Positions 35,909-39,937 are shown, counted from the first letter of the stretch. The stretch: 46,615 nt of DNA from an uncultured Verrucomicrobiales bacterium (GCA_937930235.1 CALGLJ010000029.1:1-46615), one strand, 5' to 3'. Translations and numbers: made by a program. The notes: generated by a model not told the origin, from the sequence alone.

Positions 35909-37141
35909 ATGTATAGGTGTAAAAAAGTGATTCAATTTTCTGTGGTCGCTCTGTGCGTGTTCAATTTGGTTCTTTTTGTTCTCTTAGGCCATTTCTGGAG
36001 CACCAAGAAGATCGCCAGCCAAATTCAGAATTCAGAATCTTCTCATTCCTTCTCAGGAGCTGCGACATCGGCAAATGGGAGCGCTAAAAAAGGCCAGGAA
36101 AGATATTTTATCTCAGATCAAATCCCCACCCTAGATGATGTTCTGGTGTATAGCCCCATCGAGATGGCGCGCAAGGCTGCCGCAATGAATGAAGATGAAT
36201 TAGCCGATCTAACGTATCCTCTCTCAAAATGGCTGGATGAAGACGAAGAAATGGCGCTCGCATGGCTGGATGAATTCTCAAAAGAAATGGCCAACCAGCA
36301 AGCGCATGCCAAAGCCGGTTTCTTTTTAGGTTACCTTAATCATTTCGAAAAAGTCCGTAATCTTGAACGCAAAACCTTCGATCACTGGATGGGCGGTGGA
36401 TATGAAGGGCTGGTCCATCATTTCAATCAACGATTGACGGAAGATTTCACCATTGATTCACATCATGTCTCTATTGCGGCCTCATTGATTTTAAATGAGC
36501 ACGCCGAGCACGCTCCAGATTTTTTCAAAGAGGTTGCTCAGATGAATTCACCTGAACTGGAAAGGATACAGGGAGTTTATGTGGATAAACTCCTCGCTCA
36601 TGCGAAAGATGAAGAACAGCTCTCCACTGTCATGACCTTGATCGAGCAGACACTCGATAATCCGCGCGTGTCTGCGCTCCTTCTTCCTCTGGCTCGGTCT
36701 CTTTCGGTTGAAAATCCACAGGAAACCTTATCTTGGCTCTCTGATTTACCCGTATCAGACGATGAGACTCGGGTCGCAGCTTTTGCCACCGTATTTGAAG
36801 AAGTCAGTGAATTCCAGCCGGAAGCTGCCGCGCAGATTCTCTCCGGAGAATATTTCTTGGACAACTATTTTCATAAAGAAGCACGTTTGCCGGATGGCAG
36901 CCTGACCCAAGAGTCTCAGGATTTCTTCGATACGACATTGGAGTCATTTGTGAATGTCATGTTGGTGGATCATCCCGAGACCGCGCTTGAGGCCGCTTCC
37001 GCATTCTTCGATCCGAAGAAGCAAAGCATGTATCGCAAACAAGCTCAGCAAGCATTCACCTCCGCACAAGCTGTCGGGAACGTGGGTTTCGGGTGTAGCA
37101 ATAGCAATTGTGACAAAGCCCACTGCAATGAAGCTCATTAA
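35909..37141 (+). CDS. Membrane-anchored helical protein with Cys-rich C-terminal tail
   Basis: The predicted protein has 410 residues from the ATG at 35909, which follows a GGAAGGTGG stretch; a TTG at 35873 is less likely. One N-terminal transmembrane helix (VIQFSVVALCVFNLVLFVLL) is followed by a Ser-rich linker. A helical domain shows recurring units such as EDEEMALAWLDEFS, ENPQETLSWLSDLP and DHPETALEAASAFF. The last 19 residues are CSNSNCDKAHCNEAH-like, a possible metal site or disulphide knot. I do not recognise a named family, though repeats of this style occur in other Verrucomicrobia proteins. The gene lies 51 bp upstream of the propeptide-like gene. Confidence 0.65.
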   Translation: MYRCKKVIQFSVVALCVFNLVLFVLLGHFWSTKKIASQIQNSESSHSFSGAATSANGSAKKGQERYFISDQIPTLDDVLVYSPIEMARKAAAMNEDELADLTYPLSKWLDEDEEMALAWLDEFSKEMANQQAHAKAGFFLGYLNHFEKVRNLERKTFDHWMGGGYEGLVHHFNQRLTEDFTIDSHHVSIAASLILNEHAEHAPDFFKEVAQMNSPELERIQGVYVDKLLAHAKDEEQLSTVMTLIEQTLDNPRVSALLLPLARSLSVENPQETLSWLSDLPVSDDETRVAAFATVFEEVSEFQPEAAAQILSGEYFLDNYFHKEARLPDGSLTQESQDFFDTTLESFVNVMLVDHPETALEAASAFFDPKKQSMYRKQAQQAFTSAQAVGNVGFGCSNSNCDKAHCNEAH

Positions 37142-37192: not shown

Positions 37193-38071
37193 ATGAAGAA
37201 ACTCACAATTTTTCTCAGCACTTTAGCGATCCTGCAACTTGTTGCGCTCCTGTCGATCATCCCATCTTCCGCAAAAACTGTGAACCGCAGTTCTTCTGAC
37301 GACCTGTTGCCAAGTCGGAATTTTAAGGGGTGGAAGAGCTCTTCCGAAAGGCTTACTCGGATGATGGTTGGGCCTGATTCAAATGTCTTCTTCAGCCGTC
37401 CCAAGGACCCGCGATGGAACAAACTCCCGCAGAAATACACCGAAGAGGTGGGGGCGCGTAATCCGGGGGAAGAATATGTGGATCACCTCGGTAATCACCA
37501 CTGGTATCGCGAGCCACGGCCTTTTGAGGTGACTCATTCGACCAAAAATTTCAAATGGACTGCCGAGGATGGGCGCTCTCCTGAAATTATGAAGCAGATC
37601 GCGAACAATAGCCTCATGCTTGAGGAGCTGGAGAGAACAAACTCTTTTGTGACAAAGCGGCAGCTCCTTTATGTTGCTGGTGACTTTGGGGAAAAAGGCC
37701 ACGAGGTGTTTCATGGTCAACGAGATGAAGTCGTCTTACCCGGTCCCGACGGGCAGGAGTTTGTCGTCAAAATTTCTGACTACGCCGGGGATGAAACAGA
37801 TGACAATGCTCCCATGACGGGAGTCTTTACGGGGACAATTGTAGGGCAACCAGGCTCTCGGGTGGAAGCAGCTTCTCAGGAAGATTACTGGTCCATTGGC
37901 ATCCGTACCGCAGACGGAAAATCCTATGAATTGATCAACCGTGAGCATGGCGAATTGATCCTGTCAGAGATCGATTTAGTCGCACAAGCGGAACACGACG
38001 ATTTTGGATGTGGCGCGAACCTAGGTGAGGATCATGTCGGGAGCGTTCAGCCGAGCCAAGAAAATCACTAA
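37193..38071 (+). CDS. Secreted metzincin propeptide-like protein
   Basis: The 292-residue protein has a signal peptide (KKLTIFLSTLAILQLVALLS). Its second half resembles the M12B (reprolysin/ADAM-type) propeptide: LPGPDGQEFVVKISDYAG, TGVFTGTIVGQPGSRVEAAS and SIGIRTADGKSYELI follow the G-x-V-x-G-x-P-x-S pattern. Near the end is DDFGCGAN, one Cys that could act as a cysteine switch. No zinc-binding motif is present, so it is not itself an enzyme. Its stop lies 38 bp before the HEHGH gene, which has its own signal peptide and another frame. The likeness was judged by eye and needs profile search. Confidence 0.6.
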   Translation: MKKLTIFLSTLAILQLVALLSIIPSSAKTVNRSSSDDLLPSRNFKGWKSSSERLTRMMVGPDSNVFFSRPKDPRWNKLPQKYTEEVGARNPGEEYVDHLGNHHWYREPRPFEVTHSTKNFKWTAEDGRSPEIMKQIANNSLMLEELERTNSFVTKRQLLYVAGDFGEKGHEVFHGQRDEVVLPGPDGQEFVVKISDYAGDETDDNAPMTGVFTGTIVGQPGSRVEAASQEDYWSIGIRTADGKSYELINREHGELILSEIDLVAQAEHDDFGCGANLGEDHVGSVQPSQENH

Positions 38072-38109
38072 GAATCTCCAAACAAGAGAAACAAAACACA
38101 AACATAAAC

Positions 38110-38805
38110 ATGAAAATAATACCAAAATATTCCACTCTAGCGATTGCAATTGCTTGCAGTCTCAACATGAGTGTGACTGAGAGGGCTGAGGCGCAGAACA
38201 CTGCTCTCACCGCTTATATCTGGACTCAGAACTGTCAAAATCGACGTGGCGGAAGAGGCAGTACGGCTGCTCTGATGCGCCGAGCAAATAATTTGACGAG
38301 AACAGCTCATCGAGTTTCTCGCACTCAGGCAAATCTTCAGTTGAGAGATTTGCAGCTCTTCCCAAGATATAATGACAATCATTTCTCTGGGAACAGAGCT
38401 CTCAATGATCTGAGAAATGGCCGCATAGGTAATCGGGCTGGGACCAATCTGCGACTCAAAAGATGGGAAAAGCAGAGAAAAATCGACCTCGTTCAAATGG
38501 GATCCATTTATGATGAGTTTAATGGGATTGCAACCCGACCAGGCGCATACTCAAGCGTTCGCTCTGGGCGGATTGAGACTGATACTTCAGTTCATGAACA
38601 TGGTCATAACTACAATGGACTTCATGGTCGTGCTCACAGATTTCTTGGGCGTCTTACAGTCATGCGCGCGCGGGGCAGTAATGCCCACAACCGCTTTTCC
38701 AATCCATCAGTGAGAGTCAGAGGAACCGCGCAAGGAACAAGTCGTAACAATAACGCGAAAAGAATCAGAGATCGCCGCGTAGCCAATGCGAATCGCCGTC
38801 GCTAA
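38110..38805 (+). CDS. Small secreted metzincin-like zinc protease, copy A
   Basis: The 231-residue protein has a signal peptide (STLAIAIACSLNMSVTERAEA). The zinc-binding signature is HEHGHNYNGLH (residues 162-172): HExxH, then a third His at the metzincin position 11. The Gly is one place later than in HExxHxxGxxH. A TVM at 183-185 could be the Met-turn. The body is very basic (many Arg) with a Cys at 42. The protein is far smaller than typical M12 enzymes. It lacks a propeptide of its own; the upstream gene could supply one. The paralogue at 39174 is about 87% identical. Protease activity is inferred. Confidence 0.7.
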   Translation: MKIIPKYSTLAIAIACSLNMSVTERAEAQNTALTAYIWTQNCQNRRGGRGSTAALMRRANNLTRTAHRVSRTQANLQLRDLQLFPRYNDNHFSGNRALNDLRNGRIGNRAGTNLRLKRWEKQRKIDLVQMGSIYDEFNGIATRPGAYSSVRSGRIETDTSVHEHGHNYNGLHGRAHRFLGRLTVMRARGSNAHNRFSNPSVRVRGTAQGTSRNNNAKRIRDRRVANANRRR

Positions 38806-38827
38806 TTTATCAGCGTCACTCAATGAT

Positions 38828-38870
38828 GCACCTCATGTTGATGAACTCATCGAGTCGTCACATGAGGTGC
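38828..38870 (+). terminator. Long hairpin after copy A catalytic gene
   Basis: The arms GCACCTCATGT and ACATGAGGTGC are perfectly complementary, with an inner TGATGA/TCATCG stem. There is no long T-run, so it may act as an RNA-stabilising end or a weak terminator. The same hairpin occurs after copy B. Confidence 0.6.
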
Positions 38871-38879
38871 TTTGAGTTT

Positions 38880-39135
38880 AAAATTTCCGACTAAGCAGGC
38901 GATGAAACAGATGGCAATGTTCTCATGACGGGATTCTTTACGAAGCAATTTAAGGGCAAGCAGGCTCTCGGGTGGAAGGCAGCTTCTCAGGAAGATTAGT
39001 GGTCCATCGATATCCGCACCGCAGACGGAAAACCCTATGAATTGATCAACCGCGAGCATGACGGTTTTTTGATGTGGCGCGAACCTAGGTGAGGATCATG
39101 TCGGGAGCGTTCAATCCAGCCAAGAAAATCACTAA
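38880..39135 (+). pseudogene. Dead second copy of the propeptide-like gene 3' end
   Basis: This stretch aligns with 37769-38071, the last 100 codons of the propeptide-like gene. It has TAC to TAA at 38892-38894, TAC to TAG at 38997-38999, at least one frameshift near 38945 and a deletion of about 47 bp near 39062, which removes the segment before the Cys. There is no start codon or 5' part, so it was truncated when duplicated. It shows that only the catalytic gene is kept functional in copy B. Confidence 0.9.
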
Positions 39136-39173
39136 GACTCTCCAAACAAGAGAAACAAAGTACAAACATAAAC

Positions 39174-39872
39174 ATGAAAATAATACCAAAATATTCCACT
39201 CTAGCGCTTGCAATTGCTTGCAGTCTCAACATAAGCGTGACTGAGAGGGCTGAGGCGCAGAACACTGCTCTCACCGCTTATATCTGGACCCAGAACTGTC
39301 AAAATCGACGTGGCGGAAGAGGCAGTACGACTGCCCTGATGCGCCGAGCAAATAATTTGACGAGAACAACTCATCGAATTTCTCGCACTCAGGCAAATCT
39401 TCAGTTGAGAGATTTACAGCTATTCCCAAGATATAATGACAATCATTTCAATCCGGGCAGAGCTCTGAATGATTTGAGAAATGGCCGTATAGGGACTCGT
39501 GCTGGGAGCAATTTGAGACTCAAAAGATGGGAATCACAGAGAAAAATCGACCTCGTTCAAATGGGAGCCATTTATGATGCCCTGAATGGGAATGCAAGCG
39601 TACCAGGCGCATACTCAACTGTTCGCTCCGGGCGGATTGAGGGTTCTACTTCAGTTCATGAACACGGTCATAACTACAATGGTCTTCATGGCCTCGCTCA
39701 CAGATTTCTTGGAGGACGCTTTACAGTCATGCGGAGTGGGGCCAGTAACAGACACAACCGCTTTTCCAATCCATCGGTGAGAGTCAGAGGAACTGCGCAA
39801 GGAACAAGTCGTAACAATAACGCGAAAAGAATCAGAGATCGCCGCGTAACCAATGCGAATCGTCGCCGCTAA
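39174..39872 (+). CDS. Small secreted metzincin-like zinc protease, copy B
   Basis: The 232-residue protein keeps every residue of the signature HEHGHNYNGLH (residues 162-172) and the basic tail (GTAQGTSRNNNAKRIRDRR) of copy A. Differences cluster in the loop before the signature (NGNASVPGAYSTV against NGIATRPGAYSSV) and after it (LGGRFTVMRSGASNRH). It has its own signal peptide. The propeptide-like sequence that precedes it is a pseudogene, so if it needs a propeptide it must use that of the upstream intact gene. An intact reading frame beside decayed flanking DNA suggests selection on this protein. Confidence 0.7.
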   Translation: MKIIPKYSTLALAIACSLNISVTERAEAQNTALTAYIWTQNCQNRRGGRGSTTALMRRANNLTRTTHRISRTQANLQLRDLQLFPRYNDNHFNPGRALNDLRNGRIGTRAGSNLRLKRWESQRKIDLVQMGAIYDALNGNASVPGAYSTVRSGRIEGSTSVHEHGHNYNGLHGLAHRFLGGRFTVMRSGASNRHNRFSNPSVRVRGTAQGTSRNNNAKRIRDRRVTNANRRR

Positions 39873-39894
39873 TTCATCAGCGTCACTCAATGAT

Positions 39895-39937
39895 GCGCCT
39901 CATGTTGATGAACTCATCAAGTCGTCACATGAGGTGC
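39895..39937 (+). terminator. Long hairpin after copy B catalytic gene
   Basis: The arms GCGCCTCATGT and ACATGAGGTGC pair fully as RNA, with one G-U from an A-to-G change that keeps pairing. The inner stem TGATGA/TCATCA is perfect. It may end transcription from both sides, as the YbjN-like gene converges here. Confidence 0.6.

What the first reader, a model, noticed from the sequence alone, without database searches (positions are those of the whole stretch)
37193..39937. Candidate split metzincin system: one propeptide-like gene and two tandem minimal catalytic genes
The intact gene at 37193 has M12B-propeptide-like features and a GCG Cys but no zinc site. Two later genes (38110 and 39174) have an HEHGH...H zinc signature and their own signal peptides but no propeptide. 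In known metzincins the propeptide and the protease are one chain. Here they look like separate secreted chains, so the inhibitor or chaperone would act in trans on two enzymes. Only about 230 residues per enzyme would make this unusually small.
Basis: partly seen in the sequence, partly recalled or inferred. Interest (0 to 1): 0.85.

Follow-up and report, generated by a model that had tools for sequence, protein, structure and literature searches.

The report
Protease split from its prodomain
A bacterium appears to keep a secreted zinc protease and the prodomain that should fold and restrain it on two separate genes, the prodomain apparently tethered to the membrane, and repeats this kit at several places in its genome; in human ADAM proteases and similar enzymes the two parts are made as one chain.

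Summary
The gene at 37193 (B) is an M12B-type prodomain. Its profile finds the ADAM17 propeptide first, and it is homologous to the N-terminal region of single-chain reprolysin-like proteases (E 6e-10, 3e-8). The genes at 38110 and 39174 (C) are complete adamalysin-type catalytic domains. An AlphaFold2 model of a paralogous B+C pair superposes as one unit on the ADAM17 zymogen (Z 21; catalytic domain alone about 14).

It is not a local oddity. The same order, A (membrane-anchored alpha-solenoid), B, C, recurs at five further loci of this genome and in relatives; B sits next to C in 31 of 36 loci examined. B and A look like uncleaved signal anchors and C like a cleavable secretory protein, so B probably acts in trans as a membrane-tethered folding chaperone and inhibitor, comparable to CpaB or Lif.

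Corrections: B is probably tethered, not secreted; the GCG cysteine is not conserved; about 230 residues is normal for a metzincin; the second C comes from a 1.1-kb tandem duplication whose B part has decayed. CpaA/CpaB and Lif are functional precedents. Verdict: new variant of a known kind. No biochemical function was tested.

The parts
35909..37141 (+). Gene A: about 410 aa, N-terminal TM anchor followed by an alpha-solenoid (HEAT/ARM-like), acidic, Cys/His tail; unnamed family
   Evidence: A3/A7 alignments; AF2 pLDDT 86.4, all-helical; no convincing Pfam or PDB family; 20 of 36 B loci have it adjacent
37193..38071 (+). Gene B: 292 aa, membrane-anchored stand-alone M12B-type prodomain (trans-chaperone/inhibitor candidate)
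   Evidence: profile best PDB hit ADAM17 propeptide E 0.006; homologous to the N-terminal region of fused proteases; model of a paralogue superposes on the ADAM17 zymogen; signal-anchor N-terminus
38009..38011 (+). Codon of C273 in GCG, candidate cysteine-switch residue (not conserved in the family)
   Evidence: sequence; alignments
38110..38805 (+). Gene C1: 231 aa secreted minimal adamalysin-type metzincin, strongly basic (pI about 11.8)
   Evidence: profile hits CpaA E 1.5e-6 and snake-venom/ADAM M12B enzymes; 16 of 20 family members match Reprolysin_5; pI
38593..38625 (+). Zinc motif HEHGHNYNGLH of C1
   Evidence: sequence; invariant H162, E163, H166, H172
38662..38664 (+). Met-turn Met (M185, TVM) of C1
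   Evidence: alignment
38871..39132 (+). Decayed remnant of the 3' part of a second B gene
   Evidence: 63% and 80% identical segments with stops
37769..38870 (+). Source unit of the tandem duplication (3' third of B + C1)
   Evidence: 86.7% identity over 1109 columns
38880..39937 (+). Duplicated unit (B remnant + C2)
39174..39872 (+). Gene C2: 232 aa second metzincin, 88% identical to C1
   Evidence: dN/dS about 0.36 against C1
39657..39689 (+). Zinc motif HEHGHNYNGLH of C2
   Evidence: sequence

Best explanation
A-B-C is a three-gene cassette for making a secreted adamalysin-type protease whose prodomain is encoded as a separate protein. C is exported by Sec with a cleavable signal peptide. 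B stays anchored in the inner membrane with its prodomain in the periplasm, binds C as the prodomain of an ADAM zymogen binds its catalytic domain, helps it fold and keeps it inactive, and then stays behind when the folded enzyme leaves, for example through a type II-like secretion route. A is a membrane-anchored helical scaffold that probably assists the same step. Shown: homology of B to prodomains and of C to M12B enzymes, the recurrent gene order, the anchor versus signal-peptide contrast, and a predicted zymogen-like complex. Inferred: binding in trans in the cell, chaperone and inhibitor action, the release step, and any role for A.
For: B profile: the best PDB match is the ADAM17 propeptide (E 0.006). 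The B model matches the region before the catalytic domain in single-chain relatives (L129 E 6.2e-10, L131 2.8e-8), whose catalytic domains pass Pfam Reprolysin cut-offs. C profile: CpaA 1.5e-6, acutolysin 6.5e-6, then ADAMs. AF2 of the paralogous pair B+C (L018): pLDDT 85.8, pTM 0.83. It aligns across both domains with ADAM17 zymogens (Z 19.6-21.1, 290-314 residues, rmsd about 4) and with profragilysin (Z about 18), while adamalysin catalytic domains alone reach Z about 14. Gene order: 31 of 36 B loci have C adjacent on the same strand, 28 with B directly upstream, 20 with A. B and C distances correlate, r 0.78, 0 of 5000 permutations. N-termini: B and A hydrophobic anchors, C mostly clean AxA sites. 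Acidic B (pI 4.2-5.4) against basic C (pI mostly 10-12) in the cassette lineage. One separated pair: contig C18 has A-B without C, while its likely C partner sits alone on contig C24; in relative G011 their counterparts are adjacent. Precedents: CpaB is membrane-anchored, encoded next to the protease CpaA, needed for its secretion, and its C-terminal tail enters the active site (PMC4713064, PMC7542363). The ADAM17 prodomain is needed for folding, and its Cys184 is dispensable for inhibition (PMC12184519).
Against: The docking was modelled on a paralogous pair (about 33% identical to the window proteins) joined through a read-through linker, with three single-chain relatives in the alignment that could guide it; neither PAE nor coordinates were available, and no negative control was run. 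Membrane anchoring rests on hydropathy and the absence of a clear signal-peptidase site, not on a dedicated predictor, and window B has a weak candidate site (SSA|K). Charge complementarity does not hold in all lineages (L092 C pI 5.5; the large-C clade). Several B genes (L019, L021, L089, L093) have no C adjacent. No Pfam or NCBIfam family recognises B. No assay exists.
Confidence: 0.7

Rival explanations
1. B is mainly a zinc-loading or metal-sensing partner: its Cys/His-rich C-terminal tail (and the tail of A) delivers the catalytic zinc to C or gates it, rather than acting as a steric chaperone.
For: Many B tails are Cys/His rich (L018 HGHHHDHNDPNCSLC; L078; L082; L093), and most A proteins with Cys-rich tails are paired with B proteins that have one.
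Against: Seven of 23 B proteins lack any tail Cys, four of them (L022, L076, L086, L092) still next to a C gene. The conserved part of B is the folded prodomain, not the tail; the tail is disordered in the model.
Confidence: 0.12
2. B is only an immunity-type inhibitor that protects the producing cell from C; folding of C does not need it.
For: A prodomain fold next to a secreted protease; in ADAM17 the prodomain blocks the cleft (PMC12184519). A stand-alone subtilisin propeptide-like inhibitor is known (title and abstract of PMC6993865, listed).
Against: Prodomains of this class also act as folding chaperones. B persists and diverges in step with C, which fits either function.
Confidence: 0.13
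3. The split is gene decay: a single-chain protease gene broke, and B and C are remnants.
For: Single-chain relatives exist (L087, L095, L129, L131). A true decayed B fragment lies between C1 and C2.
Against: Intact split genes at many loci and in several families, each with its own N-terminal targeting sequence, conserved catalytic residues, purifying selection on C1/C2 and often overlapping ORFs.
Confidence: 0.02

Closest known systems
ADAM17 (M12B) zymogen: prodomain + catalytic domain
   Same: Prodomain and catalytic fold and, in the model, their relative placement (Z 21); the best PDB sequence match of B is the ADAM17 propeptide
   Different: One chain cleaved by furin in ADAM17; two genes here, with the prodomain apparently membrane-anchored and no disintegrin or Cys-rich domains
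CpaA/CpaB of Acinetobacter (T2SS protease and membrane-bound chaperone)
   Same: Adamalysin-like protease with an adjacent gene for an N-terminally anchored periplasmic partner whose tail blocks the active site (PMC4713064, PMC7542363); the CpaA catalytic domain is the closest catalytic structure to C (rmsd 1.9 over 195 residues)
   Different: CpaB was described as SRPBCC-like rather than a prodomain, and CpaB is not among the sequence matches of B; cpaB lies downstream of cpaA; CpaA is large with extra domains; no gene A
Lipase-specific foldase Lif
   Same: Membrane-anchored steric chaperone encoded beside its secreted enzyme
   Different: A different enzyme class; no homology of B to Lif was found
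Profragilysin of Bacteroides fragilis
   Same: Bacterial metzincin zymogen with the same two-domain arrangement (Z about 18)
   Different: Single-chain precursor
Plasmodium stand-alone subtilisin propeptide-like inhibitor of SUB1 (PMC6993865)
   Same: Propeptide homologue made apart from the protease it inhibits
   Different: Subtilisin family, not metzincin

Membership tests
M12B adamalysin/reprolysin catalytic domain (for C) | HExxHxxGxxH zinc motif (here HExxHxxNxxH) and a Met-turn | tested here: met
   H162/E163/H166/H172 invariant in 20 relatives; M185 in C1. Position 8 is N, not G; three relatives (L020, L081, L085) lack the Met
M12B adamalysin/reprolysin catalytic domain (for C) | Adamalysin fold | tested here: met
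   Modelled paralogue aligns with CpaA 1.9 A over 195 residues and with P-I snake-venom enzymes at Z about 14; profile hits M12B structures down to 1.5e-6
M12B adamalysin/reprolysin catalytic domain (for C) | Pfam Reprolysin match over the curated cut-off | tested here: inconclusive
   Window C1/C2: none. Relatives L091, L092 and the lectin-tailed C on contig C24 pass; 16 of 20 members match Reprolysin_5 at E up to 0.01
M12B adamalysin/reprolysin catalytic domain (for C) | Peptidase activity | not testable with these tools
   No biochemistry
M12B-type prodomain (for B) | Sequence homology to prodomains of single-chain M12B-like proteases | tested here: met
   E 6.2e-10 (L129) and 2.8e-8 (L131), located N-terminal of the catalytic domain
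M12B-type prodomain (for B) | Prodomain fold docked as in the zymogen | tested here: met
   Two-domain superposition of a paralogous pair on ADAM17 zymogens, Z 19.6-21.1; a prediction, with the caveats given
M12B-type prodomain (for B) | Pfam Pep_M12B_propep match | tested here: not met
   No such hit for any of 23 B proteins, nor for the fused relatives scanned
M12B-type prodomain (for B) | Cysteine switch | tested here: inconclusive
   Tail Cys in most but not all B proteins, absent in 7 of 23; Cys-Zn geometry not available
M12B-type prodomain (for B) | Same chain as the catalytic domain | tested here: not met
   Separate genes
Membrane-bound T2SS chaperone class (CpaB/Lif) | Encoded next to the effector, N-terminal TM, periplasmic C-terminal domain | tested here: met
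   Adjacency in 31 of 36 loci; uncleaved hydrophobic N-terminus by a simple scan; periplasmic topology is inferred
Membrane-bound T2SS chaperone class (CpaB/Lif) | Required for secretion of the partner through a T2SS | not testable with these tools
   One secretin-family ORF in this incomplete genome; no assay
CpaB family | Homology to CpaB | tested here: inconclusive
   CpaB not among sequence matches of B, nor recognisable among the fold matches listed; absence is not proof

The most novel reading that the evidence does not exclude
A dedicated inner-membrane assembly complex (solenoid A plus tethered prodomain B, with metal-binding tails) folds, zinc-loads and releases a family of small secreted metzincins, so that prodomain removal needs no proteolysis: the zymogen is activated by dissociation at the membrane and one tethered B can serve several enzyme molecules.
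Probability: 0.25. Interest if true: 0.8.

Novelty: new variant of a known kind. Interest (0 to 1): 0.62.

Why it matters
Metzincin prodomains are normally studied as parts of one chain, where folding help, inhibition and removal by cleavage are hard to separate. A natural system with the prodomain on its own gene and apparently tethered to the membrane lets chaperoning and inhibition be tested genetically, shows a plausible evolutionary path from zymogen prodomain to dedicated membrane chaperone, and offers a ready-made two-component expression system. It also gives a testable function to two gene families (A and B) that the curated libraries searched here do not recognise.

Tried and rejected
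Pfam, NCBIfam and PHROGs single-protein scans of the window B and C proteins gave nothing usable; the phmmer search of window C1 gave chance hits only. A scan with window B alone found two weak Chloroflexota stretches not pursued and no viral relative. Promoter and terminator scans were at chance level. Fold search of gene A gave only generic helical repeats, none under E 0.001. Gene decay was rejected because intact pairs recur. The 'unusually small' claim was rejected by comparison with adamalysins of about 200 aa. Reading the window's own B and C as one chain for folding was not possible (different frames), so the in-frame paralogous pair in L018 was used. The catalytic-domain tree puts two split pairs (L126, L128) among the fused proteins, needing at least two changes between split and fused, but deep branches are weak and the direction is open.

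Full report
What is there. The three ORFs are real and correctly placed. Directly upstream is a fourth gene, A (35909-37141), that belongs to the same unit. Between C1 and C2 lies a decayed piece of B (38871-39132), because a 1.1-kb segment, 37769-38870, was duplicated in tandem to 38880-39937 at 86.7% identity. The picture of 'one propeptide, two enzymes' is therefore a duplicated C with its B part lost. C1 and C2 remain under purifying selection (dN 0.074, dS 0.207).

The cassette is repeated. In the same genome, B relatives occur at seven further loci, and C relatives occur beyond the window on contigs C120, C101, C24 (two genes), C41 and C89. Reading them shows A-B-C at contigs C120, C24, C101, C41 and C89, A-B without C at C18, and B alone at C123. 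With profiles, A-B-C or B-C units appear in relatives of the same genus, family and order. B directly upstream of a large C (1200-1500 aa) appears in other families of the class. In 36 B loci tabulated, 31 have C adjacent on the same strand, 28 of them with B just upstream, and 20 have A adjacent; gaps are mostly under 100 bases or overlapping. The survey was drawn from B and C hits, so it measures the linkage, not the frequency: B was found in 16 of 384 genomes sampled from the class and 8 of 388 from the phylum.

What C is. Window C1 and C2 match no Pfam model, but the family profile hits M12B enzymes in the PDB (CpaA 1.5e-6, acutolysin 6.5e-6, atrolysin, ADAMs), 16 of 20 members match Reprolysin_5, and cassette members L091 and L092 pass Pfam cut-offs. 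H162, E163, H166 and H172 are invariant. At about 200 residues after the signal peptide they are ordinary adamalysin-size domains. Some members carry extra C-terminal domains (ricin-type lectin).

What B is. No curated family matches it. Three lines say prodomain. First, its profile finds the ADAM17 propeptide first in the PDB (E 0.006, weak alone). Second, it matches significantly the region before the catalytic domain of single-chain relatives (E 6.2e-10 and 2.8e-8). Third, a model of B and C from contig C101 (the two genes joined in frame, the stops read as Ser only to link the chains) has pLDDT 85.8 and pTM 0.83, and aligns across both domains with ADAM17 zymogens (Z 19.6-21.1 over 290-314 residues) and with profragilysin (Z about 18), against about 14 for adamalysin catalytic domains alone. 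Caveats: a paralogous pair, a covalent linker, three fused proteins among 38 alignment rows, no PAE and no negative control.

Topology. Nearly all full-length A and B N-termini carry a strongly hydrophobic stretch (mean hydropathy mostly 2-3) without a convincing signal-peptidase site (one A, on L093, looks like a lipoprotein), while C N-termini have milder stretches mostly ending in AxA-type sites. This is a simple scan, not a trained predictor. In the cassette lineage B and A are acidic (pI about 4.2-5.4) and C is strongly basic (pI mostly 10-12), but not so in other lineages.

Partnership. B and C distances correlate (r 0.78, none of 5000 permutations as high; 0.73 after dropping close orthologues and the unlinked pair). 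That fits inheritance as a unit and does not prove binding. A separated pair exists: C18 carries A-B without C, and C24 carries a lone C whose closest relative (81%) is the C of a complete A-B-C set in G011, whose B is 68% identical to that of C18. If that C is the partner, B acts in trans from another locus.

The cysteine. C273 has a counterpart in most B proteins, but seven of 23 lack any tail Cys, four of which are still next to a C gene. In ADAM17 the switch Cys is itself dispensable for inhibition, whereas the prodomain is needed for folding (PMC12184519). The mechanism most likely conserved is thus folding help plus steric blocking, with the Cys an optional addition. The Cys/His-rich tails of many A and B proteins keep a metal-handling role open.

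Comparison with known systems. CpaB is a membrane-anchored partner encoded beside the adamalysin-like protease CpaA, needed for its secretion, with its C-terminal tail in the active site (PMC4713064, PMC7542363). [quoted passage not shown] What differs is that B is homologous to the prodomain itself, comes with a third gene A, and belongs to multi-copy cassettes. In the literature that could be searched, I found no description of a metzincin prodomain encoded apart from its protease; most subscription papers are not held, so this is not proof of absence.

Verdict. Function in trans, chaperoning and inhibition are inferences that simple co-expression experiments would settle.

Noticed in passing
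L116, L117, L118, L119, L121, L122, L123, L124, L125 (large C proteins): Nine large C proteins in several families of the class have a zinc motif one residue longer, HExxxHxxxxxH (e.g. HELGGHNFGCAH, HETGGHNYGCDH). They form one clade with L120, whose motif is degenerate. A lengthened motif in a metzincin setting looks unusual and deserves its own study; one paper search for it gave a single hit, which was not read.
   Followed up: partly
window 38871-39132: Decayed 3' fragment of a second B gene between C1 and C2, left by the tandem duplication.
   Followed up: yes
L019 648-2640 and L017 6072-6851: An A-B pair without C and a lone C on another contig that look like the separated parts of one cassette (intact in L076 of G011).
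   Followed up: partly
L020, L081, L085 (C genes): These C proteins keep the zinc motif but have Ile, Val or Leu where the Met-turn Met is expected (TLIGS, TLVGS, TLLGS).
   Followed up: no
L016-L022, L076-L092 (A and B C-termini): A and B proteins of the same cassette often both end in Cys/His-rich tails, or both lack them; many B tails also share a VG-containing ending such as DxVG[ST].
   Followed up: partly
L088 and L090 (G053): Reversed order: a C protein of 1104-1133 aa first, then B, then A. L127 has C then B, and L093 has B then A without C.
   Followed up: no
L022 243-1683: An ECF-like sigma factor and a likely anti-sigma gene (judged by eye from the sequence) lie directly upstream of the A-B-C cassette on contig C89.
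   Followed up: no
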